Part shown: piece by piece, positions 1 through 60,685 of the stretch
Layout of the letters: each line of letters opens with the position of its first letter
Position numbering within the stretch: the first letter of the stretch is position 1
Assembly: GCF_029227915.1 (NCBI RefSeq)
Contig: NC_079879.1
Coordinates: 20,724,501 to 20,788,500, forward strand
Direction of reading: 5' to 3'
Length of the DNA stretch: 64,000 bases
Origin: Hydractinia symbiolongicarpus
Lineage: Eukaryota; Cnidaria; Hydrozoa; Anthoathecata; Hydractiniidae
Made by a program: the position numbers and the translations under genes
Notes under the pieces: model-generated
Told to the model about the DNA's origin: nothing
Database searches by the model: none
Seen by the model: the letters and a program-made list of their open reading frames with translations, nothing else

Positions 1-209
1 GCACGTAGATCTACGGATCTATGGTATGCTTAATTTCAGGGATTCCTTAGCCCTGAAAAATTTTTGCTTTGCCTGCCCAAGTCATAACATTTAGACAAGC
101 TAGTGTCAATCCATTTTATATCGATACATCGATACATGCATTTAGTAATAATTTTTACATTCAAATTGACAATACATTTCAGTCAAAAAGTAACATATTT
201 CTTTTATGT
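1..209 (+). repeat. 209-bp direct repeat, upstream copy
   Basis: This segment recurs essentially base for base at 1860-2068. Identity stops abruptly at 209: this copy continues into the leader of the precursor gene (gaagcaatattcg), the other into unrelated sequence. It therefore forms the 5' flank of the first precursor gene and may hold its promoter. No clear TATA box is visible in it. Confidence 0.9.
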
Positions 210-274
210 GAAGCAATATTCGTAAAGTTTATATATTTTTCTAGCAACATAAATTTCTTTTTTAACAAATATAG

Positions 275-1381
275 ATGAGGTTCTTACAGTTATTGATGTT
301 GTTTGGGCTTGTAGCTGTTCTATTAGCAGGTATGTGCTGACATAAAATTCAATAAATTTTCCTCTGTTCGTATACCAGGTACTTTCGTATTGGCTGTAAG
401 TATAACAATAAACCATGTTTGCTCTGCTGGGAAGGACCGGATTACAGGTCCTGAAAAACTCGAAAAGAATAGGTTTAGGATTTTAGGATTTTTTATTTAT
501 AGCGAAAAGCGAGGATGATAACAAGAATGAACTAGATGTTGTGGACGAAGATGCAGACGACAAGAGCCCTGAAAAAGGTAAAATTACCGCTGTTAGTTTT
601 GAACAGGCTTTTGCCGTCTTTGTCCTATTCAGTCTCTGGAAAATAAAGGTTAAGGCTAACCTAAAGTTGGAATCCCAGTATTTCTTAGTTTAATATTTGT
701 AAAATAACGTTTTATTTTATCATAAATATTATTACGTGAAAAATACTTATGAATTGCAGGAAAGACCTAAGCTTTGAAGAATAAAATATTTAAAAGCAGA
801 CTCTGAAAGTGGCATACTACCTAGGAAAACTATAACACAATAACATAGAGAAATTATAAAAGAAACTGATGAACTGTACGTACGTATGTAAGTGGCATAC
901 TACTTAGGAAAACTATAACAAAATAACATAGAAAACACATAAATACATTGATGAACTGTACATTTGGTTATTGTTTCTTTTATAGCTGAGGACACTGATA
1001 GTGATGATGATAACAATAATAATGATAATGATGATGATGATGATGAGGATGATGCGGATGAAGATGATGAAAAGGGACAAGATGTTATGAAGAGAGACGA
1101 AGATGAAGAGGACGAACCCAAAAATGCTAAAGGTAACAATACTAATAAAATAATTTTTTGGAATACTAATTTTGCTTACTTTTAATTCTTCTACCCTAAA
1201 TTTAGATCCCTTGTGGTTTGGTCGACGACGCCGCAGCTACTACCGTCGACGATCCTACTACCGTCGACGATCGTACTACCGTCGACGCACGCCAAAACGT
1301 CGACGAACGCCTAAACGTCGCCGTTCTTACTACCGTCGCCGTTCCTACTATCGTCGTCGATTTGGCTTTAAAAAGCTCTAA
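275..1381 (+). CDS. Secreted acidic-propiece / Arg-rich-tail precursor (arminin-like architecture), copy 1
   Basis: Four exons by GT-AG sites: 275-329, 503-577, 986-1132 and 1206-1381, all introns phase 1, giving 150 aa. Exon 1 encodes a hydrophobic signal peptide (MRFLQLLMLFGLVAVLLA). Exons 2 and 3 encode a strongly acidic propiece with Asp runs. Exon 4 encodes DPLWFG followed by RRRR, then SYYRRR and TPKRRR repeats (seven 6-aa units), ending FGFKKL. By hand count exons 2+3 carry about -30 and the tail about +28. There are no cysteines. Layout (signal peptide, anionic middle, cationic C-terminus) matches Hydra arminin precursors, but I cannot claim sequence homology. A secreted antimicrobial is the leading inference; a Tyr-crosslinked structural protein or peptide hormone are alternatives. 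The exon structure is supported by the paralogue at 12515-13523. Confidence 0.75.
809..962 (+). repeat. 83-bp tandem duplication inside intron 2
   Basis: A block starting gtggcatactac occurs at 809-891 and again from 892, with small differences, just before the exon 3 acceptor. The paralogous intron at 13.07 kb has only one copy, so the duplication postdates the gene duplication or was lost there. Confidence 0.85.
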
Positions 1382-1859
1382 ACATTAAGTACAATGTATA
1401 TGCAGATATAATTTGTATGAGAAAACCAGTTTTAAAAAAGCTTGTCAATTTTTCTAAATGCCCACTCTAAATTTTTAACATTTCTCCAATCTTTGAAATG
1501 GAAAAGTGGCGGATTTAACGCTAGGGATGCAATATGCAACTTAACTTTAAGAACAGTACATTCAATCAATTTATAAAAAAAATCTTGTTGATATTGAGCT
1601 AAGTTTTTAAATTGCACTACGTTGCACAGAAACGTACCTCAACGGTCGTTAAAAGAGTGTTTTTCAAAACTGCTTATTAACTCACCACCATTGACAACTT
1701 TTATCAGTCAAAGCCTTGCGGTGCTTACTACATAGCGATGCAAAAATAACACACTTGATTTTACTCTGTTAAACGTGAAGAACAAGTTGAAACGACCATT
1801 TTCAGGGTCATCAGTGGTTTTTACTGAATTACCTAGCTTACGGATTGCTTGCATGCTGA

Positions 1860-2068
1860 GCACGTAGATCTACGGATCTATGGTATGCTTAATTTCAGGG
1901 ATTCCTTAGCCCTGAAAAATTTTTGCTTTGCCTGCCCAAGTCATAACATTTAGACAAGCTAGTGTCAATCCATTTTATATCGATACATCGATACATGCAT
2001 TTAGTAATAATTTTTACATTCAAATTGACAATACATTTCAGTCAAAAAGTAACATATTTCTTTTATGT
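1860..2068 (+). repeat. 209-bp direct repeat, downstream copy without the gene
   Basis: Same segment as 1-209, offset 1859 bp. Here it is followed by sequence unrelated to the precursor gene, so the flank has been duplicated without the coding exons. This suggests a larger tandem array extending left of the window, or an unequal exchange with a breakpoint at 209/2068. Confidence 0.9.
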
Positions 2069-2373
2069 TTGCGAGGTGGTTTTTACTGGTTACTAATAGT
2101 GGAATATTCTTTGTTGAGTATTCTAATGGTTGTATGCTTCTGCGGAAGAGAAGAGGACTTAAAGGGGGCTTATTTTGTTTGAAGTTCACATTTGGCGACA
2201 TTTTCGACAAAACGAGCACGTATTGGGATCTATACATGAAATCTGTGCGTAGGCAAAAGGTTAAGTTCTGCAAACTTCCCATTTTTTTGTTTGACGTATC
2301 TCAAGTCTTCAATTCCAGTCTTCTATTTCTTCATCTGCTGTTTAAACGTTACAGTGGAATGCTGCTACAATAA
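2065..2373 (+). CDS. Unrecognised 102-aa open frame
   Basis: An open frame starts exactly at the end of the 209-bp repeat. It encodes a basic, fairly hydrophobic 102-aa sequence starting MFARWFLLV, with RKRRGLKGG near residue 28. I recognise no domain, and there is no clean signal peptide or splice context. It is listed because it begins where a precursor paralogue would be expected, but it may be chance. Confidence 0.15.
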   Translation: MFARWFLLVTNSGIFFVEYSNGCMLLRKRRGLKGGLFCLKFTFGDIFDKTSTYWDLYMKSVRRQKVKFCKLPIFLFDVSQVFNSSLLFLHLLFKRYSGMLLQ

Positions 2374-2375
2374 AA

Positions 2376-3599
2376 AAGGGGAGTGAAATTCAAGCATATA
2401 GATTTCAGAGCTTGTTTCGGAATGTTGATAGGAGTCTTTAAATAATTTTCAGCGTTCTTTCCTACGTTTCTTGAAATTCTGTTGCTTTTTATAATAGTTT
2501 ACAACCATTGCTTTTTTATAGGAAGAGCAGTGATGAAAAAACTATTGTTTTTGAAAATAAAGTCTGCAAACATTGTAGGTATTGCAGCAGTGTGTGTAAG
2601 GCTAAAAAATGCCATAAAATTAAGCATAATTCTCTGTAAGCAACAATATTAAATTTGTTAGTGTAATCTGTATTTTTTAGCTCTTTATAAATTCGCTATT
2701 GTGGATTTTAATGGTGGTAGTGATCGTAAATCTGGTTACGCCAAGTTACGCATATGCGCATAATTTGTATACCTCATAATTTAGCCTAAGACGACACTGC
2801 TTATCAAACAAACTTAGCGTTACTACTTATCACAAAAGTTGAGAAGGACAACAAATACAAAAGGATAAATCTAACTAAAATTATTTATTATACTGTACTT
2901 TAATATAAAATTCTGTCCTTTAATACTACTTCACAGTCTCTTCTTTCGCGCTGTAAGCAACCGCTCTCGTGGCGCCCATGTAACATACTTGTCTGGGGAA
3001 GTGTGGTCTTTATAAATTTTCCTAAAATTTGCGATATTCTATTTATATTTGTTAGAAGGTATTATCTTGTCGACGTACTTTTGATAATCGTAAACATGAG
3101 CAATTCTTATTAATAGGTTAATATAAGTTTTTATTTAAAGATTAATTTCTTAATTTTTTATAGATTTCTAAATCACAAGATCTACTAAAATACATAGTAT
3201 AATAAGAAATAGAACTCACAACTAGGTAATTATACATTTTCCTAACAACATTTTGCATAGTTGTATGAGGTGAAAAAAGTAGGTATATTTAAAAAAATAT
3301 TTTATTATAATTGTTTAGACCTAATACAAGTTCTCGTCCCAATGAATTTATTCAAACTACCCTTTGGTTTATTGTGGTACTTATAAGTAACATTTTGTTA
3401 GATCTTTGTGATACTTAAAACTTCGGCTTCTACTTTTAACACCTACTGCACGACGCTTATTAAGTACAATCCTCCTGTAGCTATATATCTTGGTGTGCCC
3501 TGCAGCTTTTTTTGAATAACTTTTTGTCCCTGTAATTTCGCAAAGAAAAAAATATTGATGAGTAAGGAATCAGTCATTGTCTTCATTTTGTGATTACAG
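2376..3599. other. Intergenic, no gene seen
   Basis: AT-rich sequence without a credible coding frame. About 3165-3290 (agatttctaaatc...) resembles 32182-32330, so it contains part of a dispersed repeat. Confidence 0.5.
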
Positions 3600-3967
3600 T
3601 AATGCTTCGAATAAACGCCCACCTTCTATTAAACGCCCCCCCCCCTCGAATAGACGCCCCCCATTTTCAGTCATTTATTGAATAAACGCCCCCTCTAATA
3701 GACGCCCCCCTCTAATAGACGCCCTCTCTCATAAGGGGGCGTTTATTCGAGGCGATAGTAAAAGTATAATAAAAAATGAATAACTGTTATTGTTTTGCTC
3801 ATTTAATTAATGGTGTTATTATAATATAGAAATTTCATAAACACAACTATACATCGGTAAAATAAGGAAATTTTCTATAAACACCTTTTTTCCTAAATCT
3901 TAGGTTTAAGGTTGGAAATTTAGTTTTTCGCTTTTCAAGTTCATTCTCTAAAACCTGTGAATATCTT

Positions 3968-4316
3968 TTATTTTCTGTTGTGAAGATAAACTTTTGCCAG
4001 TACAACAAGTCCAATTTCACGATGCCGTTTACCAGTTGTTTTTGCTTTTATTTCATTCCCTGGATCTTGATTAATGAAATGATAGCAAACTTGAAATCTC
4101 AATTGGTATGTGTCCCACTTGGATATCGTTTTTGTAAAAACCAACCGCATGTTTGTCACATTCTTTTGCATCTTTCCTTTCATCCACAGCCGCGTCAAGA
4201 ATTTCTCCTATCACAGCATCCCATACTTCCTTGTAAACATGGTGACCACGAATGATACATGAAACTTCAGTCTTATAACAAACTATAAACTCTTTCCATA
4301 GCATAACTCGGGACAT
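3968..4316 (-). pseudogene. Divergent HIRAN-like second ORF of the pogo-like element, frameshifted
   Basis: Two overlapping minus-strand frames (4071-4316, then 3968-4198 in another frame) join into one protein-like sequence. It contains RGHHVYKEVWDAVIGEIL, D-KHAVGFYKNDIQVGHIP and INQDPGNEI. The pattern (G-x-x-L, then D-x-x-A-V, then V-G-H-I-P) resembles the HIRAN domain found in Rad5/HLTF-type proteins, and I recall similar stand-alone proteins in cnidarian genomes. A frameshift near 4080-4090 breaks it. It is transcribed away from the transposase and lies inside the same TIRs. The domain name is from memory and inference. Confidence 0.45.
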
Positions 4317-4578
4317 GATTCACTTATATTTCTCTGCACTTTTCTGTGTTAACGAAAACAAACAAGAGTGAAATTTATTTTCAAATAAAAATGCTTTGAA
4401 TTTGTGTGCAGAAAATGTGCAAAATTAATTTCTGTGAACAGGTGTCGTAAAACTATTGTGTTGAAAAAGTTTCTTGAGGTCACTTGATGTGTGATGTGTT
4501 ACATGCTGATGAAAATAAAAAGCAGTGAGCAGTGAACAAACAAGTTTTATTGCATGTTTTGAAAATTTTCTTGTCAAG

Positions 4579-5966
4579 ATGGCTGAAAAAGTAAGTGATT
4601 TAGCATCCTCAAGAGGAAAAAACGGCGTCCTTATTACTATGGATTTCAAAAGACAGGTCTGTGAATATGCTGAAACAAACAGCAATAGAGCTGCTGCATC
4701 CCGTTTCAATGTTGAACCAAAGCGTGTGAGAGAATGGAAAAAAGATATTCAGCAAATTAACTCAACAAAATCAAACAGGCAATGTCTTGAAGGTGGAGGG
4801 AAAAAATGCATAGATGAAGAAGATAATTTAGTACATTGGGTGTATGATCAAAGGAGTAAAATATTGCACGTGAGTCGCAAAATGATTATGTGGAAGGCTA
4901 AAAGCATGTTTGATGAAAAAAACGATGACCCTGCCATCCAAGATTCTTTCGTTGCAAGCCGTGGATGATGTGAGAAATTTATGCGGAGGCATGGATTCTC
5001 TCTACGCAGAAAAACGACGACAGCTCAGAAAGATCCCTCCTATATGATTGATCGCATTGTGTCATATTTTTTGCATATACGTCGACTTTAAAAGCAGTAC
5101 AATTTTCCCGATTCTGCTATAATTGCTACGAATGAAACTCCTGTCTGGAATCACATGGTTTCAAATACAACAGTTGAAAAAACAGGATCGAAAGAGGTTC
5201 CCATGAAATCAACTGGACATGACAAGGTCCATGTGTCTGTATGTGTGGCAGCTAAAGCAGATGGAAGCCAATGGAAACCTTTCATTGTGTTTAAAGGAGC
5301 TAAAAAAGAAAGCAAAGCCCTCCATGAAGAATTTAAACGAAAATGTTCGGTCGCAAGTTCAGCCAACGGTTGGATGAATGAACAATTGACATGGTACCAG
5401 GCGCTGGTACCAGGAAATATTAGGTCAATTTTCGTTCCAAAAACGACTCCTACCTTGGGATTCTTTTGAAGCTCACTTAACGGATGAGGTTAGGAAAGCA
5501 TTAACAAATGGCAAAATTGAAACTGTCATTGTTCCAGGTGGATGTACCAAGTATATTCAAGCCCCCGATGTTTCCTGGAATAAGCCATTCAAAGGGAAGA
5601 TACAAGAATTTTATGACGATTGGCTTGCAAATGGAAAGCATGCTTATACCGAAGCTGGAAACATGAAACCTGTCCCTAGAAGATTAATTGTGGAATGGGT
5701 GATTAAATCATGGGAGAATATAACGAATGAAACATTGGCGAAATCAATGAAATTGTGTGGTTTAGCGTTGGCGATTGACGATCTCTTGTTTCAAACAAAG
5801 GAAAAAATGTGAAGCTGGTAGAGAATTACTGAAAAATCAAATGTTGAACTTCGCCGATAAGGATTTAGATAAAAATCCATTCGAGATAACAGAAGAAGAT
5901 GTGGCTGATGCTTCGCCTGGCTTCAATATTATTGACAAAGATGACAATGAACTAGATATATTGTAA
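4579..5966 (+). pseudogene. pogo/Tigger-like DDE transposase, disrupted
   Basis: The first frame (from MAEK at 4579 to 4968) holds a helix-turn-helix region (FKRQVCEYAE ... AAASRFNVEPKRVREWKK) typical of pogo/CENP-B-like DNA binding. Downstream pieces include GFSLRRKTT, HDKVHVSVCVAAKADG, FIVFKGAKK and DSFEAHLTDEVRKAL. Further on come VPGGCTKYIQAPDV, PVPRRLIVEWVIKSW and a C-terminal acidic tail with DASPGFNIID. These are familiar DDE_1 (pogo/POGK-like) segments. In-frame stops after 4965 and near 5090, and frame changes near 5455 and 5800, make it non-coding. Start chosen at the Met preceding the HTH. Confidence 0.85.
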
Positions 5967-6125
5967 AGTTGTTGTATCCTTAAAAACTGCAAAAAGAAGA
6001 AAGTGTAAAAAATTTAATAAACGCCCCCCTCTTTTAAACGCCCCCCCTAAAGTTTAATAAACGTCCCGGGCGTTTATTCGAAGCATTACTTTCTCGTAGT
6101 TCTCTTGTAACTTCAAAAATAATAA

Positions 6126-6268
6126 GTAGATATACAATAGGTAAACTTAGGTTATTGAGATTTATTAAGCCGAGGTGATTTATATTCAACGACGCGCAGC
6201 GGAGTTGAATATAATATCACCGAGGGTTAATAAATCCAATAACCTATGTTTACCTATTGTATATATGT
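6126..6268. repeat. Near-perfect palindrome (foldback MITE)
   Basis: The left arm, from gatatacaataggtaaac through ggttattgagatttatt to tatattcaac, is mirrored by the right arm ending gtttacctattgtatata. Arms are about 62 bp around a short GC-rich centre (gacgcgcagcgg). This would fold into one long hairpin, as foldback or MITE elements do. Confidence 0.85.
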
Positions 6269-6269
6269 T

Positions 6270-6730
6270 TTATTATATACCCAAAAGAGATTGTTATAAT
6301 TAATATTACTTATTTTGTTTTGTGTTTGTTTTGTTTTCGTTTCATTTTATAGTGTAGATCGGAACATTTTTTTGTGAAATCGACATGTTTTCGAAATGTT
6401 GTTCAAATCGACACGGTACAAAGAGACAAAAAGTTCATTTCTTTTTTTTTAATGTTGAAAGTTTTGATGTTTTTGTAAAAAGAATTTTCTCGACAAAAAA
6501 AGTTCCCCCCATTTCACATGTTTGAAAATCGACCAATCAGAAAACGGACCACTAAGAAACAACCAAACACAGTTAATTACGATAAAAATTAATGAGGCGG
6601 AAAGGATAAAATCAAAACATGCGTTTACGAATGTTTTGTCAAAACTATTGTTACGTCACAAGCATTGAATAATACGGGTGGAATACGATTATTTATTCAA
6701 TGGCTGTTTTTGCTTACGGGTATATAATAA
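6270..6730. mobile_element. MITE-like element with TTATTATATACCC ends
   Basis: TTATTATATACCC at 6270-6282 is exactly mirrored by GGGTATATAATAA at 6718-6730. The 461-bp interior has no coding frame. It directly abuts the palindrome on its left, so the two may be nested insertions or one composite element. Confidence 0.6.
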
Positions 6731-6965
6731 TAGTAAATATTTACATTGCTATATTACATTGTGTATTATATTATGCTCATTATGCTGATAGATGTTTAAA
6801 AACGGAAAAAAAGTGTAAAATCAAATGAATTTGACAACTTCCCTTATCTTTTGTACCTTCGGTTTCGACTGAAATCGTGACATATTTCTGGCTATGCAAA
6901 CAAAAGAGTCGCAGAAATGAACGCCATTATGAATATTTATATATTTTTTTGAAATAGGAAAGTTC

Positions 6966-9098
6966 CAGGGGCGTAGCCAGCGTCAGTCAGGCTCTGCGGT
7001 CGACTGACCTACTTTTTTCATTTCAACACGTCGTTTTTTCCACCGCCAACGCCAACACATGGATGGGCGCACCAATGGTGCATCCGGCACAAATCTTTTC
7101 CCGGGCGGCACACACAAGCTTCGCGCTTTGCACGTCGTTTTCGCAGGATATAACAGTATTCACTTTGTTTTGCAGGCTGAGGTGTTGAATTTCTACTTTG
7201 TTTCGCAGATAGTCTTTTTCGCAGGATTACCTGCGAAAATTATACCTATGTACGGTCTTGTGTCTTCCATTTATGGTCATTTTGGACGCATCCTATTGGC
7301 TAGTAAATTTCGCAGAGAGGTTAAAAATTCGTTCCATATATGGCTATGGAACATACACAAAAAGTCAAAAAACAAAACAAGAAAAAACAAGGCTAGCGAA
7401 GTTGTGAAGGTGAAGAAGGCATGATGTTGCTGTCAAGCGTGGGTCCGTATTAAGCTTTATAACTTGTATAGAGCTTCATGAAAATTCTCTATACTCGAAC
7501 CATCCAATTTTTGTATCTGTATGTAAATCTTCAGATTTGTTTTCCTGTGTAGAAAGCACTTTCAAGTTTTCAGTTAGCTAGCTATTCATCCTCTTCTGTA
7601 ACTCTGTGTAGACAGCAGATCTTGTAGCTATACAGAATAAAGCTATTCTTATAAGCCTTTATAACAGTTTATTTAAGAGAAATATTTTAACTTTTTATCC
7701 TGATTGTGGTCAGCTATGATTCAAGACGGTTTTAAATCAGAAGATTTTTCCTCATCTGCCTTCAAATAAAAATTTACAACCAGTATCTATTTTATTTTGC
7801 GATAATGACAAACATTCGGGCAATTTAAACCTATTATTTATTTATTTATTTCCGAATTTATATACAGGATGAGTATGTCAGTAAAAAATACTGTTATAAA
7901 TATACGTCCTAATCCCTTCAGTTTCTTTAAGTTTGAGTAAAGCTACGTTAGAGCGTTCTGTTCAATATTTTAAGCTAGGTTGTCATATGTTATGACAACA
8001 AAGCAAAAAAAAAAGAAAAAGGAAACGTGTGTATCATCTCGAAGTTGTTCCTTTTGCATTAACCAAAACGTTAGTTAATCAACGTGGTACTTCTAGCACT
8101 AATGACAAGACTTCTTCCATTTGTAAAAAGCAAATTTTTAACTTAAAATCTTTTTCGCCAAGGGGATTTCTAAATCTAAACCTATTAAACCTAAACAAGT
8201 TTTATCTGCAGAACCTTGGTAGATGCATTCTCTTCAGGTTTTCTTAACGGTATTGGGAAATATAATGTAGGCACTCACTACGACAAGCTCCACACCTCAG
8301 TGATCACGATTATTCTTCCCATTGTAACTTGCGAGAGGACGTCTTAAGGTTTATTCATTGTAGTGAAGGCTCTCAGGTTTGTCTTTTTCAAAGGTCATTT
8401 TAAAAACCTTATGAACTTTCTCTTGATATATATACAGAATTGATAAGGTCAATGTTATGACGATGCTGGCAATGTATCTGTTAAAATTGATAATTGTCAT
8501 GCTAACATTTTAAAGCAAAACAGATTAGCTTTATACATATCCTTGTTCTTCTCATTGCTTAAATTTAGTTGTCTGTAATTCATGCTTTGTACATTATTTC
8601 TGAAACATGATGAATCGAATCAAACGTAACATATTTTTACAAATTTTCCAAAAGTAGTTTAAAATTTTTACGCAAGAATGTTCCTTATTTAACTAATAAT
8701 CCCAACTATGCCCATAATTTTAATATTTGTAACACGATGTGTGGAACGTATTATTAACACGAGGGTTTTCAATGATTTGTATGAAGGCATTTTGTCCATG
8801 GTTCCATTTCATTATATTGAATTTTTTATTATATTTATGAAGAAAGAAGATTTTGATTTGGTTATTTTTCAATGACCTCCAATGACCTTTTTCGATCAAT
8901 TCAATCAATACTTAACGTTTATCGCGTAGTCACAGAACCGTTTTTGGCGTTTCAGTGCTTAAAGGGCGTAAAAAGGCGTTGGGGGGGGCTCACAACGCCC
9001 CCAAACCCCTAATTGCTTATTATCGCATCTGCGGTGCGATGTTGACCCTGCGGGTCAATGGTTCGACTAAGGTTAATTTTTTTCTGCCTACGCCCCTG
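6966..9098. mobile_element. hAT-like non-autonomous element
   Basis: The left end CAGGGGCGTAGCCAG and the right end CTGCCTACGCCCCTG form imperfect 15-bp inverted repeats of the type common in hAT transposons. The 2.1-kb interior has no transposase; a 121-codon frame at 7059-7424 matches nothing I know. The 8-bp flanks (gaaagttc / agttcata) share only agttc, so a clean target duplication is not visible. The ends are convincing; their pairing as one element is less certain. Confidence 0.6.
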
Positions 9099-9239
9099 AG
9101 TTCATATATTATGTAGGCAACACATTCGAAAGGCTGCATTTAAAGAAATTGGGTTAGACATTGGGTTAGACAAAATAAGTTAAATATATAGATAATTTAA
9201 TGTTTGAAATAATCTTCTAGCTAGTATCTAGTCTATGCC

Positions 9240-9565
9240 ATAAGTGTCCTAATTAACTATTTACCAGGAAGCGAGAATGTTTACCCAACATCTCTTTTGG
9301 AACCCAATAAGCATATAATTACTTCCTCACCAAGAAATTATTGTTTACTTACTAATTGTTAATAGTTCCTTTTATTCCTAGCTACAGTATTTAAGATGGC
9401 ACAATATGTATTGATTAAATATTAACCAGTAGGGAAGCAGGATTGGTTACTAAACGTCTCTTTGGGAACCAAAGAAGCATATAATTACTTCCTCACCAAC
9501 AGATATTTGTTAACTTACTAATTGTAAATAGTTTTCTTTGTTCTTATAATAATAGAGATGGGACG
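9240..9565 (+). repeat. Imperfect tandem duplication, unit about 170 bp
   Basis: Two adjacent blocks share ggaacc..aagcatataattacttcctcaccaa and ttacttactaattg(t)aaatagt, the first near 9290-9375 and the second near 9465-9540. There is no coding content. Confidence 0.75.
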
Positions 9566-12236
9566 CGTTGTTTTTTCATATATCTTATTTCCCATGTTTT
9601 TACTTGCACGCCTTCTTAGGCAATAACACGGAATTGCAGAGGACAGAGTAAAATAAAAATTTGAACTTTTTGTTATACAAAAACTAAAAATAAGGAAACT
9701 ACTAAACCAATAAACTCCTTTGTAGATGGACGTGTGTAAACATTAGTTGTTTCGAAAGATTATTCATTTTTTAAGTATTACGTGGGTATAAGAGCAGGCG
9801 ATTTTATAAACTTCGAAAACAACATCTGTGCTATTACGATTCGATTTTTCGTCTGAGAAACTTAGTTAATCATTGCGGCATAACTACTGTCTTAACAGCA
9901 ACATGCAACTAAATCACAGTTCTTAGGTTTTTTTAACTTTGCCGCCAAATGTTCTTAAAGTTTTCAAAATAGCATTTCTTTAACCATAAGAATGATGCAA
10001 AAAAATTTGTTATCAGCAACAATCAGACACAAAATTAAGTAATAATTAATTTCCTGTGGTTTCACATTAGTGTTTACTGATCTGACATAAAAGTTAAAAT
10101 CTTGCAGACAAATGTTCATCAATTTCTGTCATCTAAAAAGGACTTTTAGCCAATTTTTTTTATCGGTGTTTGTGGCATGCCATCATTATTTGGAAGCAAT
10201 ATAACTTCAATCGTCCACTAACATAATGGCTCTCCTATTTTTTACCCCTCATCTGATATAAATCTAAAAAAACGTACATTCTTTTGCTAAAATTAAAACC
10301 GGCAACCTATTTTTAAACGATTAGCTAGACCTATTTGATAGATACTACTAATCAGAAAGATACCTACCTGGTTTTATGCTAGCTAGTTTTAAGAGCTATG
10401 AGATTTCCTTTCGAAAAGTTTTTCCATTAGCTAGGTAGGTCCTAAGAAAGGGTTAATTAAATGTAAAAATGTGATTTACTAAGTACATAACTACATTTTC
10501 TCACAAAAATATAAAGACAATGACACTTTTTTAGCCATGACCACACTGAGTTGGCAACTGTTGGCACATTTTAAGAGTTAGGACCAAACCAAAGATCATA
10601 AGTTTACGGAAGTAAACTTTGACAAGTTGAAGTTGCGTGACTTTAGTATAGGAAGGGCATATGTAACTTCTTGTGGGGAGGAAGTTCGAAATTTGCAAAC
10701 TTGTTTTAATATATTTTGTCGGCGAGTGTAATTAGAATGATTTGTTCAGTGTACATTGGGCAAACTTGCTTTATGACATGACAAACCAACAGGCTTTCCT
10801 GGGTAAAAATAAAAGAAAAAACTCGCAGTGTGAAAGAAGATGTTGTCTTGCATAATTAGAAATGTAAGGGAAAATGACTAGACTAAATTTAAAAGGTAGT
10901 TATCATTATTGAAAAAGCTAGTTAAAAATATTGGAATTTGCAGCGTAAAAAGCTAATTTCAACGTCATGTGAAACTTTTGGTGAATTTTACTGAATACAG
11001 AAACAATGTTTATTACCTAACACGTCTTAAAAAGTGAACGTCCATTGTTATTATTTAGCCCGACAACTTAAGTCACACGTATCAAATTAAGAAATCTTGC
11101 ACAATATTTAAAATACTCTTTTGACTGTGCAGTTTGTTTTGGAAGTGAAAATAATTTCGAATTGTCATGCCCCAAGAGCTGCTAAGTGTACTGTAATATA
11201 ATTCAGTGACGTAGGAATCTGCAAAGATCGCCACAATTTAAATTTTAAACGACCCCTTTTTTATTTTATTAAAAATAGCTGCTCACTATACGATCCTAAT
11301 CAACTTCCGTTACCCAGAGGAATAATTAGCATTCATACGCAAGTCATCCAACATGGTCAAACTTTTAATGCAGAAAGAAAGACCGCTTTAACTATTCTTG
11401 TATTATTCTATTTCTTCTATTTTTTATTTTTTTTATTTGAAACTATATTTTACACTTGTAGCTTGTTATTTGTAATTTCATTACTACTTTTTGTTCATCA
11501 TTCTTATAAGATTTTATCGAAGAATGAATAAACAGACGAACAAAACAACCGACGCAAGCAAGCAGCAAAAGGTCTATCTTTAGGACTTTTTGTGGATTTT
11601 CGAGCACTTGCTGGGGTTTTTCCATGTGAATGATGTAGAACAAGAGAAAATAAGTTAATTATTAACCTTTATTTGGTTGTCAGAATTTAAAAAAAGAATC
11701 AAAATCAACTATGCGTAAATTGTTCCCCTCTCTTTGAGGGCTTTAACACAACAGAACCCGTTTGCATTTCAATAATACTCTACAATGTCAGCACTAAAAA
11801 TAATGTATAAAATCGGCAATTTACAGTATTTTCTTATTTTACAGTTCTAACTTCCTAAGTTGCACGAAAAAAACACTCGCGCAACAAACACTGAAGTTTG
11901 TGACATTCCTACAGAAACCAAATTACACTCGTGATAGCATCTCGTACGTAATCAGATTAGATAAGTATCTATCAAATGATTATCACGGAGGAACATCGCA
12001 CTATATTTTGTGATTAAAAATAACAGCAATGTACAAACAAATACCTCTTGTTAAGCCCTAAATATGTACGTATACTTAAGAATGATATATACAATACAGT
12101 GGTGTTATAATAAAATAAATAAACGTGGGGTTATTTTTTATGTTAATAAGAATAAAAGTTGTTTCGTAATTTCTACCCCCTGATCGACATAATCAGAGGG
12201 ATCATTACTCAGCAATATTTAGTTTCGGAACGTACT
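9566..12236. other. Intergenic, no gene seen
   Basis: About 2.7 kb of AT-rich DNA between repeats and the second precursor gene. I found no frame longer than about 65 codons that looked coding, and no repeat I could define. Confidence 0.5.
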
Positions 12237-12309
12237 TATAAAAGAGCATGATTCTCCTTAAAACGATCAGTGAGAGATTCGTAGTAAGAAACAGGTGTCA
12301 CTTTGCATG
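12237..12309 (+). promoter_or_regulatory. Putative TATA box and non-coding 5' exon of precursor gene copy 2
   Basis: TATAAAAG lies at 12237-12244. About 25-30 bp downstream begins a short stretch ending at 12309 in a consensus donor (catg|GTAAGT). Acceptors at tttttctag (12484) or aaatatag (12514, directly before the ATG) would join it to coding exon 1. Inference from signals only. Confidence 0.45.
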
Positions 12310-12449
12310 GTAAGTACATTGCAGTAGGTACCTCCATCGATGTGTCTATTGGATGCCCTTTTTACATCTATTCATTGGCGTATTATGGTTATTTATTTTT
12401 TCTTTCTTTTTGTACTAAGTAACAAGGCAATGGAACAAACTATAAAGAT

Positions 12450-13974
12450 GAAGCAATATTCGTAAAGTTTATATATTTTTCTAGCAACATAAATTTCTTT
12501 TTTAACAAATATAGATGAGGTTCTTACAGTTATTGATGTTGTTTGGGCTTGTAGCTGTTCTATTAGCAGGTATGTGCTGACATAAATTTCTATAAATTTT
12601 CCTCTGTTTGTATACCAGGTACTTTCTCTTTGGCTTTAAGTATAACAAAAAACAATGTTTGCTCTGCTGGGAAGGACCGGATTACAGATCTTGAAGAACT
12701 GGAAAAGAATAAGCTTAATAAAGGTTTTTTTATTTATAGCGAAAAGCGAGAATGATAACAAGAACAAACTAGATGTTGTGGACGAAGATGCAGACGACAA
12801 GAGCCCTGAAAAAGGTAAAATTACCGCTGTTAGTTTTGAACAGGCTTTTGGCGTCTTTGTCCTACTCAGTCTCTGGAAAATAAAGGTTAAAGGCTGAGAT
12901 GTGAATATACGCTAACTTAAAGTTGGAATCCCAGTATTTCTTAGTTTAATATTTGTAGAATAACGTTTTAATTTATCATAAATATTATTACGTGAAAAAT
13001 ATTTTTGAATTGCAGAAAAGACCTAAACTTTGAAGACTAAAATATTTAAAAGCAGACTCTGAAAGTGGCATACTACTTAGGAAAACTATAACAAACTAAC
13101 ATAGAAAACACATAAATACATTGATGAACTGTGCATAAGGTTGTTGCTTCTTTTATAGCTGAGGACATTGATAGTGATGATGATAATAGCGATGATGATG
13201 ATAATGATGATGATGAGGAAGGGGAAGAGAGGCAAGATGTTATGAACAGAGACGAAGATGAAGAGGACGAACCGAAAAATGCTAAAGGTAACATTAATAA
13301 CAAAAAAAAAAAATTTTTCAGACTGCTAATTTTGGTTACTTTTAATTCTTCCACCTTAAATTTAGATCCTTTGTGGTTTGGTCGACGACGCCGCAGCTAC
13401 TACCGTCGACGATCCTACTACCGTCGACGATCGTACTACCGTCGACGAACGCCTAAACGTCGCCGTTCTTACTACCGTCGCCGTTCCCACTATCGCCGTC
13501 GATTTAGCTTTAAAAAGCACTAAACATTAAGTACACTGTAAATGCAGATCTTTTTTGTACAAGAAAAACCAGTTTAAGAAAAGCTTGTATATTTTTAAAT
13601 GCTAAAATTTTAGCATTTTTGCAATCTTTAAAATGGTAAAGGGGTAGATTTAACAGTAGGGATGCAATATATCACATCTTTGAGGACAGTAAGTTCAATC
13701 AATTGATTAAAAGTTTTTGTTAATATTGATCTTAAATTTTAAATTGCACTACGTTAGTTATTTACAGAAACTTATTTGCGTACTATCTCAACGGTTGTTA
13801 AAGGAGTTTCTTGCCATTTCAAAACTGCTTATTAACTCACCACGATTGACTACTTATATCGGTCAAAGCCTTGCTGTGCTTACTACAAAGTAGTACAAAA
13901 ATAATACACTTATTTTTACTCTGCTAAACGTGAGGAACAAGTTGAAACGACCATTTTCAGGGCGATCAGTGGTT
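12450..13974 (+). repeat. Segmental duplication, copy 2 (pairs with 210-1819)
   Basis: Collinear with 210-1819 across exons, introns and 3' flank. The sequence left of 12450 is unrelated to 1-209, so the two gene copies have different upstream regions. Confidence 0.9.
12515..13523 (+). CDS. Secreted acidic-propiece / Arg-rich-tail precursor, copy 2
   Basis: Exons 12515-12569, 12740-12814, 13159-13287 and 13366-13523, all introns phase 1, giving 138 aa. The signal peptide exon is identical to copy 1. The acidic exon 3 is 18 nt shorter, and the cationic exon is also 18 nt shorter because one TPKRRR unit is missing. The tail reads DPLWFG-RRRR, three SYYRRR, one TPKRRR, SYYRRR and SHYRRR, then FSFKKH. 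By hand count the propiece carries about -25 and the tail about +24, so the near-neutral balance of copy 1 is kept. Probable secreted cationic peptide precursor; function inferred from architecture only. A TATA box and likely 5' exon lie upstream. Confidence 0.75.
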
Positions 13975-18170: not shown

Positions 18171-19351
18171 ATGGAAACTGGTGGAAGTACAATGGACACT
18201 GTTGCTGCCTCAGCAAAAAAGAAATACAGGTATGAGTATATATATACAATTAAAGTATCCTTTCTAGAGAAAAATAGGATAACTTTTTACATGGCATGTA
18301 CATTAGTGTTTACTATAATTTTAGTTCTGTTCACCAGCGTTCTGTGGAGAAAAAGTTATTAAGAAACAAAGAAAAAAAGCAACGAAGAAAAGAGCAACGT
18401 AAGCGCCTCTATGAAGCTAAAAAGAAAGAGACACTGGAAAAAGATGAAAAACTGTTATTGCTAGAAAGACAAAATTCGGTTTTAAAAAGAGAGGTTCAAA
18501 AAACCCAAAAAGTAGCTGCTTCAGGTTCCAACCGAATGATATCAATGAATTCTCTGTCGGTATCAATATTACACCAAAATCGAAACAAAAATGTGGGAAT
18601 TAACAGGTTTTTTACCTCAAGAATAACCACATTCAGACGCAGTGATGTGATTGACTTGGAGAAGGATATACATTCCGGTGCATTTGGGTCAGTCTTCACT
18701 GGGTACATTAAAAGTATTCAACAAAGGGTAGCAGTAAAGAAAATGGATGAGAATTCAACCTCTTTAGATGTTTTAGTTGAAGCAAAGATCACTTCACACT
18801 TAGCTTCGCTTTCAGGTGGAATCTATTTTCCTTATGTATATGGTATTACCGACTCGAAATGTATTTTGTTGGAGTTTATTGGAGAAAACAACAAATTTTC
18901 TCCCAATCTTAATACCGTGATGGAAAAAAGTGACCTATCGAAATCAAGTTGGATCCAAGTGCTAACAGAAATTTGCAAGGGATTTAGTTTCATGCACACC
19001 AAAAACATTTTGCACAACGATGTACATAGCAAGAACATTGTCTTACGAAACAAACAATTCGTCAAGATTATAGATTTTGGCAAAGCTACTTTAATATCCG
19101 ACCCCTTGCGGTATGACATAAAGCGTGGTAGTGAAAGGCAGAAAAAATTTAATACTAAACATTGTCATCTTGCCTACGAGTTAAGGAACGTACCTGGCTC
19201 TTATCAAAGTTTGGAAACAGATGTTTTTAGTATTGGATACAATTTTGGAAAAGTTGCACAAAGATTAAAGTGGGAAGGATTGGACAAAATTTCTACTTCC
19301 ATGATGAACATAGTTCCGGCGAATCGTTCTACTTTAAGCAAAGTGCACTAG
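18171..19351 (+). CDS. Protein kinase with basic coiled-coil N-terminus
   Basis: Two exons fit: 18171-18229 (METGGSTMDT...) and 18325-19351. The donor cag|GTATGAG and acceptor attttag|T keep the frame, giving 361 aa. Residues about 25-80 are Lys/Glu/Arg-rich and probably coiled coil. The kinase domain starts near residue 130, with glycine loop SGAFGSV, VAVKK (ATP lysine near 158), helix C Glu near 172, catalytic loop HNDVHSKN (Asp about 252, Asn about 257), DFG at about 270-272 and a helix-F Asp in ETDVFSIG. All catalytic residues are present, so it may be active. HND-V replaces HRD-L, a variant I associate with expanded invertebrate kinase families; APE is replaced by AYE. The substrate is unknown. 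The last codons and stop lie at the start of a tandem duplication, so the C-terminus may be altered. Confidence 0.8.
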
Positions 19352-30639: not shown

Positions 30640-31062
30640 ATTTGGGATATCAGTGGATTTGCGCAGTTGGTCAACAGTGATTTTGCATGACTGGTCAACG
30701 CCAGTAAATGATGTTTGAATTGATTTCCGTAGCTAGTCAACACCGGTGGTTTTGGCTTGAATTGATTCTCGTAGCTGCTCGACACGAGTGTATCGGTTCA
30801 AACTGCTCTCCGTAGCGGTTTGACACAAGTAGTTTTAGTTCGAATGATTTCTGTAGCTGGTCAACACCAGTGGTTGTGATTCGAATTGATTTCCGTAGCT
30901 GGTCGACACCAGTGGTTTCCATTCGAATTGATTCGCGTAGCTAGTAGACACCTGTGGTTTTGATTTGAATTGATTCCCGTAGCTAGTCGACACCCGTGGT
31001 TTCAATTCGAATTGATTCCCATAGCTGGACGACACCAGTGGTTTTGATTCGAATTGATTCCC
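30640..31062 (+). repeat. 42-bp minisatellite, about eight to ten units
   Basis: Units begin (g/a)tagctggtcgacaccagtgg and end cgaattgattccc. Starts fall near 30729, 30771, 30812, 30853, 30895, 30937, 30979 and 31021 (41-42 bp spacing). Two degenerate units lie to the left. It follows the integrase remnant directly. Because 42 is a multiple of three, several frames stay open on the minus strand, giving 14-residue repeats such as STSYGNQFE; I treat those as a by-product. Confidence 0.9.
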
Positions 31063-31069
31063 GGTAGTA

Positions 31070-35000: not shown

Positions 35001-35356
35001 TTTTAAAAATATATAAAAAATTTTTCTCGCTTAGATTCTTTTTCTGGGTGCCACCAAATATTTTTGATCGCCCCTCTTTTAAGAAAGTTTGACAAGACAA
35101 CTCCAAGGAACCAGGGAAAATGCTTCTACTTAGTGAAGGTTCCACTTATCTGGGGTTCCACATATCGAGCGGCAACTGGATATTTCTCCAACTTCACTAC
35201 CAACAAAGTGTCTTAAGCAACTTGCTACCAATTTTCTTTAAATGGCTGTTGTCTGTGCCTTCTAACTGTTTCTAAGCGTTGTACAATGAATAATTACAGT
35301 TAAATGTTTATGTTATAAATGTTGTTTTTTTATTTAGGTACAAGCATTTTATTACA

Positions 35357-36376
35357 ATGGTAATAAAATGCGCTGAGGAGATACTAATGCATTCAAATGA
35401 CACATTCTATTTGGCGAGTTTAAGCAAGAGAGAAATTTTTCCAAAGACAGTTTATTTTATTTTATGCGTTCTAACCGTAATCATATACGCCATTAACTTA
35501 ACAGGAAATGCAGCAGTAATATTTTCTATTTTACTACAAAAAACCTTGAGAACTCCTATGAATTATCTTCTATTAAATCTGTCGATTATACACATTTCTT
35601 CTGGTACGAACATCCTGTTTTTCACGTTTGTTACGGATACTGGATCCGTTGTGGACACACAAAAAAGCCAAGATCTTTTATGTGGGTATAGTGAAGGAGT
35701 GGGATTTTATTCAATTTGCGCGACAGTATATTTGTTTACATTGTGTGCCATTAGCGTAAACAGGTTCCTTGCAGTCCAATTTCCAACAAAAAAAGAATAC
35801 CGAATGAACAAAAAAACAGTGATTATTTACAATGTACTCGCATGGTTTGTTTGTGCTGGTTTGGCTTCTCCATCATTCCTTTCTTTTCGTTACAACAGGC
35901 ATGTCCGACTGTGTTTGCGACAATGGAACAATATCAAACATTCATTTGTATATCGAATAATTCTTATTTTCTTTGCTGTTACAGTTCCAATAGTGTGTTT
36001 TCTCCTAGCTTTATTCGCTCTTATATGGAAACGAACGAGAAGCAGATTAAATTGCCAAAATGGAGGATCAGTGAGAACTACAACGCTTAAAAAAGCAGAG
36101 AAATTGATTGTGTTGTCGATGGTAATTTTAATCGCCTGTTGGATTCCTTTCGCGATATACTGGTGCTTATGGACAGTTGGCTACTTTCCTGGTTGCAGTG
36201 GTAGCATTAGATCTATGACATGGATTCGAGTGACGATATTATGCTCAACAATCAATGGAGCAATTGATCCATTCCTTTATACGTGTGGCAACACGAAACT
36301 AAGAAGAGCAGTGACATCATGTCGTACATGGTTGCTATCACGGACAAAAGTTTCTGCCGTAAATAATGTAACTTAG
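35357..36376 (+). CDS. Rhodopsin-class (class A) G protein-coupled receptor
   Basis: Uninterrupted 339-aa frame with seven hydrophobic segments. Landmarks: N-terminal glycosylation sites (SND, LTG region), TM1 LTGNAAVIF, TM2 NYLLLNLSIIHIS, a Cys before TM3, TM3 end ISVNRFLAV, TM4 Trp in LAWFVCAGLASP, TM5 Pro in TVPIVCFLLALF, TM6 CWIPFAIYW and TM7 AIDPFLYT, with a short basic tail. The family norm DRY is NRF, NPxxY is DPFLY, and the conserved TM2 Asp appears to be His. The ligand is unknown; cnidarian genomes hold many such orphan peptide- or amine-like receptors. Met at 35387 is an alternative start. A tttatttag acceptor (about 35337) just upstream suggests a 5' UTR intron. Confidence 0.85.
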   Translation: MVIKCAEEILMHSNDTFYLASLSKREIFPKTVYFILCVLTVIIYAINLTGNAAVIFSILLQKTLRTPMNYLLLNLSIIHISSGTNILFFTFVTDTGSVVDTQKSQDLLCGYSEGVGFYSICATVYLFTLCAISVNRFLAVQFPTKKEYRMNKKTVIIYNVLAWFVCAGLASPSFLSFRYNRHVRLCLRQWNNIKHSFVYRIILIFFAVTVPIVCFLLALFALIWKRTRSRLNCQNGGSVRTTTLKKAEKLIVLSMVILIACWIPFAIYWCLWTVGYFPGCSGSIRSMTWIRVTILCSTINGAIDPFLYTCGNTKLRRAVTSCRTWLLSRTKVSAVNNVT

Positions 36377-60523: not shown

Positions 60524-60685
60524 ACTACCTACATAATACATTGTCAACTGAACACCCGAACCTGAACACGGAAATGCGGAACAATTTACCCCGGAATACC
60601 GGAGACTACCTACATAATACATTGTCAACTGAACACCCGAACCTGAACACGGAAATGCGGAACAATTTACCCCGGAATACCGGAG
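60524..60685 (+). repeat. Perfect 2 x 81-bp tandem duplication
   Basis: The unit from actacctacataatacattg to ggaataccggag occurs at 60524-60604 and 60605-60685 with no difference seen, so it is recent. 81 bp is 27 codons, which keeps a short plus-strand frame open across it; I do not consider that frame coding. Confidence 0.92.

What the first reader, a model, noticed from the sequence alone, without database searches (positions are those of the whole stretch)
275..13523. Paired genes for secreted precursors with acidic propiece and Arg-rich SYYRRR-repeat tail
Two four-exon paralogues encode a signal peptide, an Asp/Glu-rich propiece and a cationic tail of RRR separated by SYY or TPK. The layout mirrors Hydra arminin precursors (established: signal peptide, anionic region, cationic antimicrobial C-terminus), but the regular 6-residue SYYRRR periodicity is unlike any arminin I recall. 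It could be a new cationic antimicrobial family.
Basis: partly seen in the sequence, partly recalled or inferred. Interest (0 to 1): 0.88.

Follow-up and report, generated by a model that had tools for sequence, protein, structure and literature searches.

The report
Secreted Arg-Tyr repeat precursor gene pair
A genome that looks like a relative of the polyp Hydractinia carries two sister genes for small, apparently secreted proteins in which a strongly acidic front half cancels the charge of an arginine-rich repeated tail; this is the usual blueprint of a masked antimicrobial peptide, built with an unfamiliar repeat, but its activity is untested.

Summary
Two four-exon genes, A (275-1381, 150 aa) and B (12515-13523, 138 aa), encode a signal-type N terminus, an Asp/Glu tract and a tail of RRR blocks spaced by SYY or TPK. 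Introns are GT-AG, exon indels are 18 nt, and Arg triplets vary only at third codon positions. There is no transcript evidence. 'Arminin-like' holds for the layout only: the tail aligns to arminin 1a worse than shuffles, lacks helical amphipathicity, and PMC10945409 reports arminins confined to Hydra. No relative was found in a 5.8-billion-protein search that holds some Hydractinia proteins. New here: (1) the two halves cancel in both copies (-30/+28, -25/+24), each half differing by six residues; (2) the 3-Arg/3-other spacing leaves one R-x-x-R furin motif per protein, at the head of the repeat; (3) exon 4 is better conserved than its neighbours (intron 3, 3' flank) though not than intron 2, while the acidic exon is no better than intron 3. 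Best explanation: a charge-masked secreted polycation released by furin, most likely antimicrobial (0.5). Main rival: an Arg/Tyr coacervate or adhesive (0.22).

The parts
275..329 (+). Gene A exon 1: signal-type N terminus MRFLQLLMLFGLVAVLLA
   Evidence: Kyte-Doolittle mean of residues 3-18 is 2.64; 55/55 nt identical in A and B. No signal-peptide predictor was run.
503..577 (+). Gene A exon 2: start of acidic propiece
   Evidence: 72/75 nt identical to B
986..1132 (+). Gene A exon 3: Asp/Glu tract; whole propiece net -30
1206..1381 (+). Gene A exon 4: (D)PLWFG then RRR-SYY/TPK tail, stop; tail net +28
12515..12569 (+). Gene B exon 1: signal-type N terminus
12740..12814 (+). Gene B exon 2: start of acidic propiece
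13159..13287 (+). Gene B exon 3: Asp/Glu tract; whole propiece net -25
13366..13523 (+). Gene B exon 4: repeat tail, net +24, stop
1223..1234 (+). Gene A codons for RRRR (residues 99-102), the only R-x-x-R in the protein, directly before SYYRRR
13383..13394 (+). Gene B codons for RRRR (residues 93-96), the only R-x-x-R in the protein
209..274 (+). 5' flank of A shared with B without a mismatch (66/66); TATATAT at 230
12237..12243 (+). TATAAAA upstream of B, outside the segment shared with A; possible promoter of an upstream non-coding exon
   Evidence: inference
12310..12315 (+). GTAAGT donor-like site upstream of B, outside the segment shared with A; possible end of a 5' UTR exon
   Evidence: inference

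Best explanation
A and B are paralogous genes for a small secreted polycation made in a charge-masked form. The hydrophobic N terminus sends the protein into the secretory path (inferred from sequence). The Asp/Glu propiece neutralises the Arg-rich tail in cis so that it does not bind membranes, nucleic acid or glycans inside the cell (inferred from charge balance). A furin-type cut at RRRR|S, the only R-x-x-R in each protein and at the head of the repeat, frees a polycation of 48 (A) or 42 (B) residues; the 3-Arg/3-other spacing keeps Arg out of the P4 place everywhere else, so furin itself should leave the tail whole (inferred). The tail has no helical amphipathicity, so it would act as a multivalent Arg/Tyr chain on anionic surfaces (lipid A, DNA), in the manner of protamine or the clustered-Arg peptide of PMC3681751, and not as an amphipathic helix. 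The likeliest biological role is defence against bacteria.
For: Charge: propiece -30 and tail +28 in A, -25 and +24 in B. The copies differ by one 6-residue block in each half, so balance is kept. This fits the net charge balance idea for defensin and frog propieces (PMC7073735, passages; in that paper the correlation was negative in two of three species, not significant in the third and not significant when pooled). Charge is segregated: SCD -27.7 and -20.7 against shuffle means of -1.8 and -1.7 (300 shuffles each). One R-x-x-R in each protein, at the head of the repeat; 0 of 5000 free shuffles of either tail had so few, and 4 of 5000 (A) and 14 of 5000 (B) shuffles that keep the Arg blocks whole. 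Exon 4 is 153/158 identical against 424/500 in intron 3 plus the shared 3' flank (P 1e-5) and exceeds all introns plus 3' flank together (P 9e-4); exon 3 (112/129) equals intron 3 (62/73, P 0.83). Clustered-Arg peptides kill bacteria and need their Arg and charge (PMC3681751, abstract and two sections). Bipartite charge, clustered paralogues and lineage restriction are traits of Hydra AMP genes (PMC10945409, passages).
Against: No expression, processing or activity data. The tail is strongly hydrophilic (mean Eisenberg value -1.05 against -0.35 for arminin 1a) and has no helical amphipathicity. There are 20 (A) and 17 (B) dibasic steps in the tails, so convertases other than furin might cut them, and K-R-R-R occurs twice in A and once in B. 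Regular 3+3 spacing alone gives the lack of R-x-x-R, so that lack is no proof of selection for it. The KR of A's propiece is not kept in B. Exon 4 is not better conserved than intron 2 (308/325, P 0.36), and exon 3 is worse than intron 2 (P 0.006): identity is patchy, as gene conversion would make it. Tail dN/dS is 0.53 on 5 changed codons, 2 synonymous and 3 not. Charge covariation rests on one pair of genes.
Confidence: 0.5

Rival explanations
1. An unprocessed or partly processed secreted polyampholyte that forms a complex coacervate: opposite-charge blocks and Arg/Tyr (possibly DOPA) contacts make an adhesive, perisarc or egg-coat material.
For: Segregated, nearly neutral polyampholyte with 57-59% charged residues; Tyr pairs next to Arg triplets; no dibasic site within the propiece is kept in both copies; low-confidence model with no helix or strand assigned (mean pLDDT 58.8).
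Against: Only 10 (A) or 9 (B) Tyr and no Cys; the acidic tract is no better conserved than intron 3. In the paper search on hydroid glue and coacervates none of the 20 papers listed, of 285, holds 'Hydractinia' or 'perisarc' (listing only). Mussel and sandcastle-worm parallels are recalled.
Confidence: 0.22
2. A component of nematocyst contents, where a secreted polycation pairs with the polyanionic poly-gamma-glutamate matrix.
For: Nematocysts are built by secretion into a post-Golgi compartment (abstract of PMC10014300 in the listing); a polycation would bind a polyanionic matrix (inference, matrix recalled).
Against: No Cys and no collagen-like stretch. None of the 10 papers listed holds 'arginine-rich'; one (PMC4595111) holds 'cationic protein' and was not read.
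Confidence: 0.1
3. A multi-copy peptide precursor in which RRR blocks are only cleavage sites and SYY/TPK tripeptides are the product.
For: Regular spacing; the Arg blocks are convertase-like sites (20 and 17 dibasic steps).
Against: The 15 Arg blocks of the two copies are pure Arg (only the K of TPK adjoins some of them); tripeptides without amidation Gly; spacers vary (SYY, SHY, TPK) while Arg does not; the charge balance would be unexplained.
Confidence: 0.06
4. A protamine-like nuclear protein of sperm.
For: Arg clusters resemble those of protamine (PMC3681751 section 29).
Against: Hydrophobic signal-type N terminus encoded by its own exon, identical in both copies, and an acidic half that would oppose DNA binding.
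Confidence: 0.04
5. Decayed or non-expressed duplicates.
For: A lacks the TATAAAA and donor-like site found upstream of B, because the shared segment begins at 209/12449.
Against: Frames, splice sites and stops are intact in both although the shared 3' flank is only 362/427 identical.
Confidence: 0.05

Closest known systems
Hydra arminins
   Same: Signal peptide, anionic N-terminal half, cationic C-terminal half, most paralogues in one locus (passages of PMC11051070 and PMC10945409).
   Different: No sequence similarity above shuffles; repeat of Arg triplets, not an amphipathic helix; conserved tail; host probably not Hydra, judged by the nearest named GPCR.
Hydra periculins and HyCWR peptides
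   Same: Biased charge, paralogue clusters, lineage restriction; for HyCWR no conventional cleavage site between the portions (PMC10945409 passages).
   Different: Those have Cys patterns; the present proteins have no Cys.
Defensin and frog AMP precursors (net charge balance)
   Same: An acidic propiece is held to neutralise a cationic mature part (PMC7073735 passages).
   Different: The mature part here is a hexamer repeat; no KR is kept in both propieces. The charges here (24 to 30) are larger than those of such precursors (recalled).
Protamine and the hepatitis B core Arg-rich domain peptide
   Same: Several Arg clusters separated by short spacers; reported antibacterial (PMC3681751, abstract and sections 28-29).
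   Different: Those are a nuclear and a capsid protein without signal peptide or acidic propiece (recalled).

Membership tests
Arminin | Signal peptide, anionic N-terminal part, cationic C-terminal part | tested here: met
   (signal judged by hydropathy, not by a predictor)
Arminin | Sequence similarity to arminin 1a | tested here: not met
   Score 20 for both tails; 1998 of 2000 (A) and 1991 of 2000 (B) tail shuffles, and 1833 and 1713 of 2000 arminin shuffles, score as high; first 20 residues of the junction likewise, 1696 and 1333 of 2000
Arminin | Helical amphipathic mature peptide | tested here: not met
   Helical moment at most 0.23 in 18-residue windows against 0.52 for arminin 1a; strand moment 0.35-0.40 against 0.47; model without helix, of low confidence
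Arminin | Conserved N-terminal, poorly conserved C-terminal region | tested here: not met
   Exon 1 55/55, exon 2 72/75, exon 3 112/129, exon 4 153/158; two genes only
Arminin | Confined to the genus Hydra | tested here: inconclusive
   Species not named; nearest named GPCR relatives are Hydractinia symbiolongicarpus proteins at 50 and 49% identity
Arminin | Antibacterial activity | not testable with these tools
   needs synthesis and assay
Charge-masked antimicrobial precursor (general kind) | Acidic propiece balances cationic part | tested here: met
   -30/+28 and -25/+24
Charge-masked antimicrobial precursor (general kind) | Cleavage site at the junction | tested here: inconclusive
   One R-x-x-R per protein, RRRR before the first SYY, but also 20 and 17 dibasic steps in the tails; cleavage itself not shown
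Charge-masked antimicrobial precursor (general kind) | Kills microbes; expressed at barrier tissue | not testable with these tools
   no transcripts or assays
Protamine | Arg clusters | tested here: met
Protamine | Nuclear protein made without a signal peptide | tested here: not met
   signal-type N terminus; localisation itself not tested

The most novel reading that the evidence does not exclude
A hydrozoan lineage has evolved, independently of Hydra's AMPs, a secreted antimicrobial polycation made of Arg-triplet/Tyr-pair hexamers. Its length is tuned by gain and loss of 18-bp repeat units while the acidic propiece changes in step to keep the precursor neutral, and the 3-Arg/3-other spacing makes the tail proof against furin everywhere except at its own release site: a self-balancing, furin-proof masked polyelectrolyte.
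Probability: 0.25. Interest if true: 0.75.

Novelty: new variant of a known kind. Interest (0 to 1): 0.5.

Why it matters
If right, the bipartite charge-masked precursor plan recurs in a second hydrozoan lineage with an unrelated payload, which would support the view that cnidarian defence peptides arise again and again by lineage. It also gives a very simple test case for charge co-evolution between propiece and mature peptide, because both halves differ by whole 6-residue blocks. The 3-Arg/3-other repeat is a natural answer to how a highly Arg-rich peptide could pass through a furin-bearing secretory path without being cut up.

Tried and rejected
Pfam: 14 and 8 families listed for A and B at E <= 10, none reaching its curated cut-off; NCBIfam: 11 and 7 at E <= 1, none reaching it. 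PADLOC and PHROGs were not searched. Solved structures, protein A only: 5 rows, best E 0.23. Homologue search with whole protein A: 1 of 3043 candidates at E <= 10 (E 5; the protein has an acidic run); with residues 1-52 of A: 2 candidates, none at E <= 10. Protein B was not searched in that database. Sensitivity control: phmmer of A against B and 18 random point-mutated copies of B at the same database size gives 8e-64 for B, below 1e-7 for all 3 copies with a 50% draw of replaced positions, and 6e-10, 2.5e-4 and 0.26 for the 3 copies with a 60% draw. The word pre-filter of the database search was not simulated. Idea that A is a recent copy of B: disfavoured, since the 209-bp repeats flanking A are identical while the shared 3' flank of A and B is 362/427 identical, so a further copy outside the window is likelier; the whole genome could not be searched. 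Idea that the tail is a fresh DNA expansion: rejected by third-position-only variation. The first figure for the 3' flank (372/447) included a non-homologous end and was replaced; the P value for exon 4 against its neighbours went from 2e-6 to 1e-5. Paper searches: literal string SYYRRR in 0 papers; arminin with Hydractinia in 4, of which one was read in passages and three were not opened; Hydractinia with 'antimicrobial peptide' and 'arginine-rich' in 0; the protamine search was seen as a listing only. Rfam at gathering scores and tRNA scans: nothing. Structure model of the two tails: mean pLDDT 58.8, not used for a fold search.
Full report
WHAT IS THERE. Gene A spans 275-1381 and gene B 12515-13523 on the plus strand, each with four exons, GT-AG introns and the same exon phases. 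The proteins have 150 and 138 residues. Each has a hydrophobic N terminus, a propiece of 74 (A) or 68 (B) residues with 39 or 34 Asp/Glu, and a tail of 58 or 52 residues with 29 or 25 Lys/Arg. The tail of A has 8 Arg blocks with 5 SYY and 2 TPK spacers; that of B has 7 Arg blocks with 4 SYY, 1 SHY and 1 TPK. Unspliced, both frames stop after 21 residues.

WHY IT IS CODING. Period-6 self-match (0.72 and 0.65) exceeds the maxima of 5000 shuffles for each tail (0.48 and 0.53). In the aligned Arg triplets variation lies at third codon positions only, in 3 of 3 such columns and in none of the 6 others, in both genes. Between the copies the two exon indels are 18 nt each, while intron indels are 3, 19, 83 and 5 nt. 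Splice sites and stops are intact in both copies, although the shared 3' flank is only 362/427 identical.

HOW THE PARTS EVOLVE. Identity by part: 5' flank 66/66, exon 1 55/55, intron 1 151/170, exon 2 72/75, intron 2 308/325, exon 3 112/129, intron 3 62/73, exon 4 153/158, shared 3' flank 362/427. Exon 4 exceeds intron 3 plus 3' flank (P 1e-5), intron 1 (P 0.006) and all introns plus 3' flank together (P 9e-4), but not intron 2 (P 0.36). Exon 3 does not differ from intron 3 (P 0.83) and is worse than intron 2 (P 0.006). The 5' flank plus exon 1 exceeds intron 1 (P 4e-5). The simplest reading is that the tail is held in sequence and the acidic tract mostly in charge. Limits: intron 2 is nearly as well kept as the exons, only 5 codons differ in the tail (2 synonymous, 3 not; dN/dS 0.53 there, 0.35 in the rest), and synonymous change in the tail is low too, so patchy gene conversion is a real alternative.

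CHARGE BALANCE. By integer count the propiece is -30 and the tail +28 in A, -25 and +24 in B. B lacks six residues in the acidic exon and six (one RRR plus one spacer) in the tail, so both halves differ in step and the sum stays near zero. The charge pattern is strongly segregated (SCD -27.7 and -20.7 against shuffle means of -1.8 and -1.7). This is what masking of a cationic product by its propiece predicts. A paper on 266 frog AMP sequences (passages read) calls this the net charge balance hypothesis and reports a weak negative correlation in two of three species, but not in the third nor in the pooled data. One pair of genes cannot prove it here.

PROCESSING. Each protein has one R-x-x-R, the RRRR directly before the first SYY. 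A furin-type cut there would free 48 or 42 residues. Because three Arg alternate with three other residues, no Arg inside the rest of the tail has another Arg at the P4 place; 0 of 5000 free shuffles of either tail reach so low a count, and 4 of 5000 (A) and 14 of 5000 (B) shuffles that keep the Arg blocks whole. Any strict 3+3 array has this property, so it is a consequence of the regular spacing and not in itself proof of selection for it. K-R-R-R occurs twice in A and once in B, and 20 and 17 dibasic steps fill the tails, so other convertases could still cut. The KR in the propiece of A (MKR) reads NR in B.

WHAT IT IS NOT. No Pfam or NCBIfam match reaches its curated cut-off. Against about 5.8 billion proteins, protein A finds 1 of 3043 candidates at E <= 10 (E 5, a protein with an acidic run), and its first 52 residues find none of 2. 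The same database holds named Hydractinia symbiolongicarpus proteins and an unnamed 91% relative of a GPCR from this window. Scored with phmmer at that database size, B would appear at about 1e-63. So no relative sharing words with A was found, even though related hydrozoans are in part covered; absence from any given species is not shown. Arminin: the alignment score of 20 lies below the shuffle means of 29.7 (A) and 28.4 (B). The helical moment is at most 0.23 against 0.52, and a perfect SYYRRR repeat has 0.00 over 18 residues; along a strand the tails reach 0.35-0.40 against 0.47. The AlphaFold model of the two tails has mean pLDDT 58.8 and no assigned helix or strand, which agrees with disorder but proves nothing.

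SOURCE. A single-exon rhodopsin-type GPCR (35354-36373) is 91% identical to an unnamed assembled protein and 50 and 49% to two Hydractinia symbiolongicarpus proteins, so the window is probably hydrozoan, near but not in that species.

LOCUS. A is flanked by a 209-bp direct repeat without a mismatch (1-209 and 1860-2068). The segment shared by A and B begins at 209/12449, 66 bp before the start codon. B has a TATAAAA at 12237 and a GTAAGT donor-like site at 12310, both outside the shared segment; in the part of the window upstream of A (1-290) only TATATAT at 230 was found, which B shares. So B may have a non-coding first exon and A another promoter. A broken DNA transposon (pogo/Tigger-like by its domains; the label is recalled) with 23-bp perfect terminal repeats lies between the genes (3598-6090).

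MECHANISM AND VERDICT. Shown: gene structure, bipartite charge, repeat, single R-x-x-R, conservation pattern, no relative detected. Inferred: secretion, masking, furin release, action on anionic surfaces. Precedent for antibacterial action of clustered Arg: the hepatitis B core Arg-rich peptide and protamine (PMC3681751, abstract and sections 28-29), in which loss of Arg or of charge lowers the activity of the former. Precedent for the gene plan: Hydra AMPs with bipartite charge, clustered paralogues and confinement to their lineage (PMC10945409, passages). I put antimicrobial defence at about 0.5 and an Arg/Tyr coacervate or adhesive at about 0.22. It works like a charge-masked AMP precursor; it is not shown to be an arminin, and three of the arminin features tested are not met.

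Noticed in passing
3598-6090: DNA transposon (pogo/Tigger-like, label recalled) between the two genes: 23-bp perfect terminal inverted repeats, BrkDBD and DDE_1 matches above cut-off, frame broken into pieces.
   Followed up: partly
1-209 and 1860-2068: Identical 209-bp direct repeats flank gene A, although the shared 3' flank of A and B is only 362/427 identical: suggests recent duplication or conversion and further copies outside the window.
   Followed up: partly
804-961: A duplicated stretch of 76-83 bp in intron 2 of gene A; B has an 83-nt gap there.
   Followed up: no
35354-36373: Single-exon rhodopsin-type GPCR, 91% to an unnamed assembled protein, 50 and 49% to Hydractinia symbiolongicarpus proteins named adenosine- and opioid-receptor-like.
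   Followed up: partly
18278-19348: Protein kinase domain frame followed by a 96-bp direct repeat at 19343/19488.
   Followed up: no
30714-31063: Minisatellite of 42-bp units with a 126-bp higher-order period.
   Followed up: no
60524-60685: Two perfect 81-bp tandem copies; very recent, or an assembly effect.
   Followed up: no
6130-6264: Palindrome-like element of about 135 bp that matches its own reverse complement at 86%.
   Followed up: no
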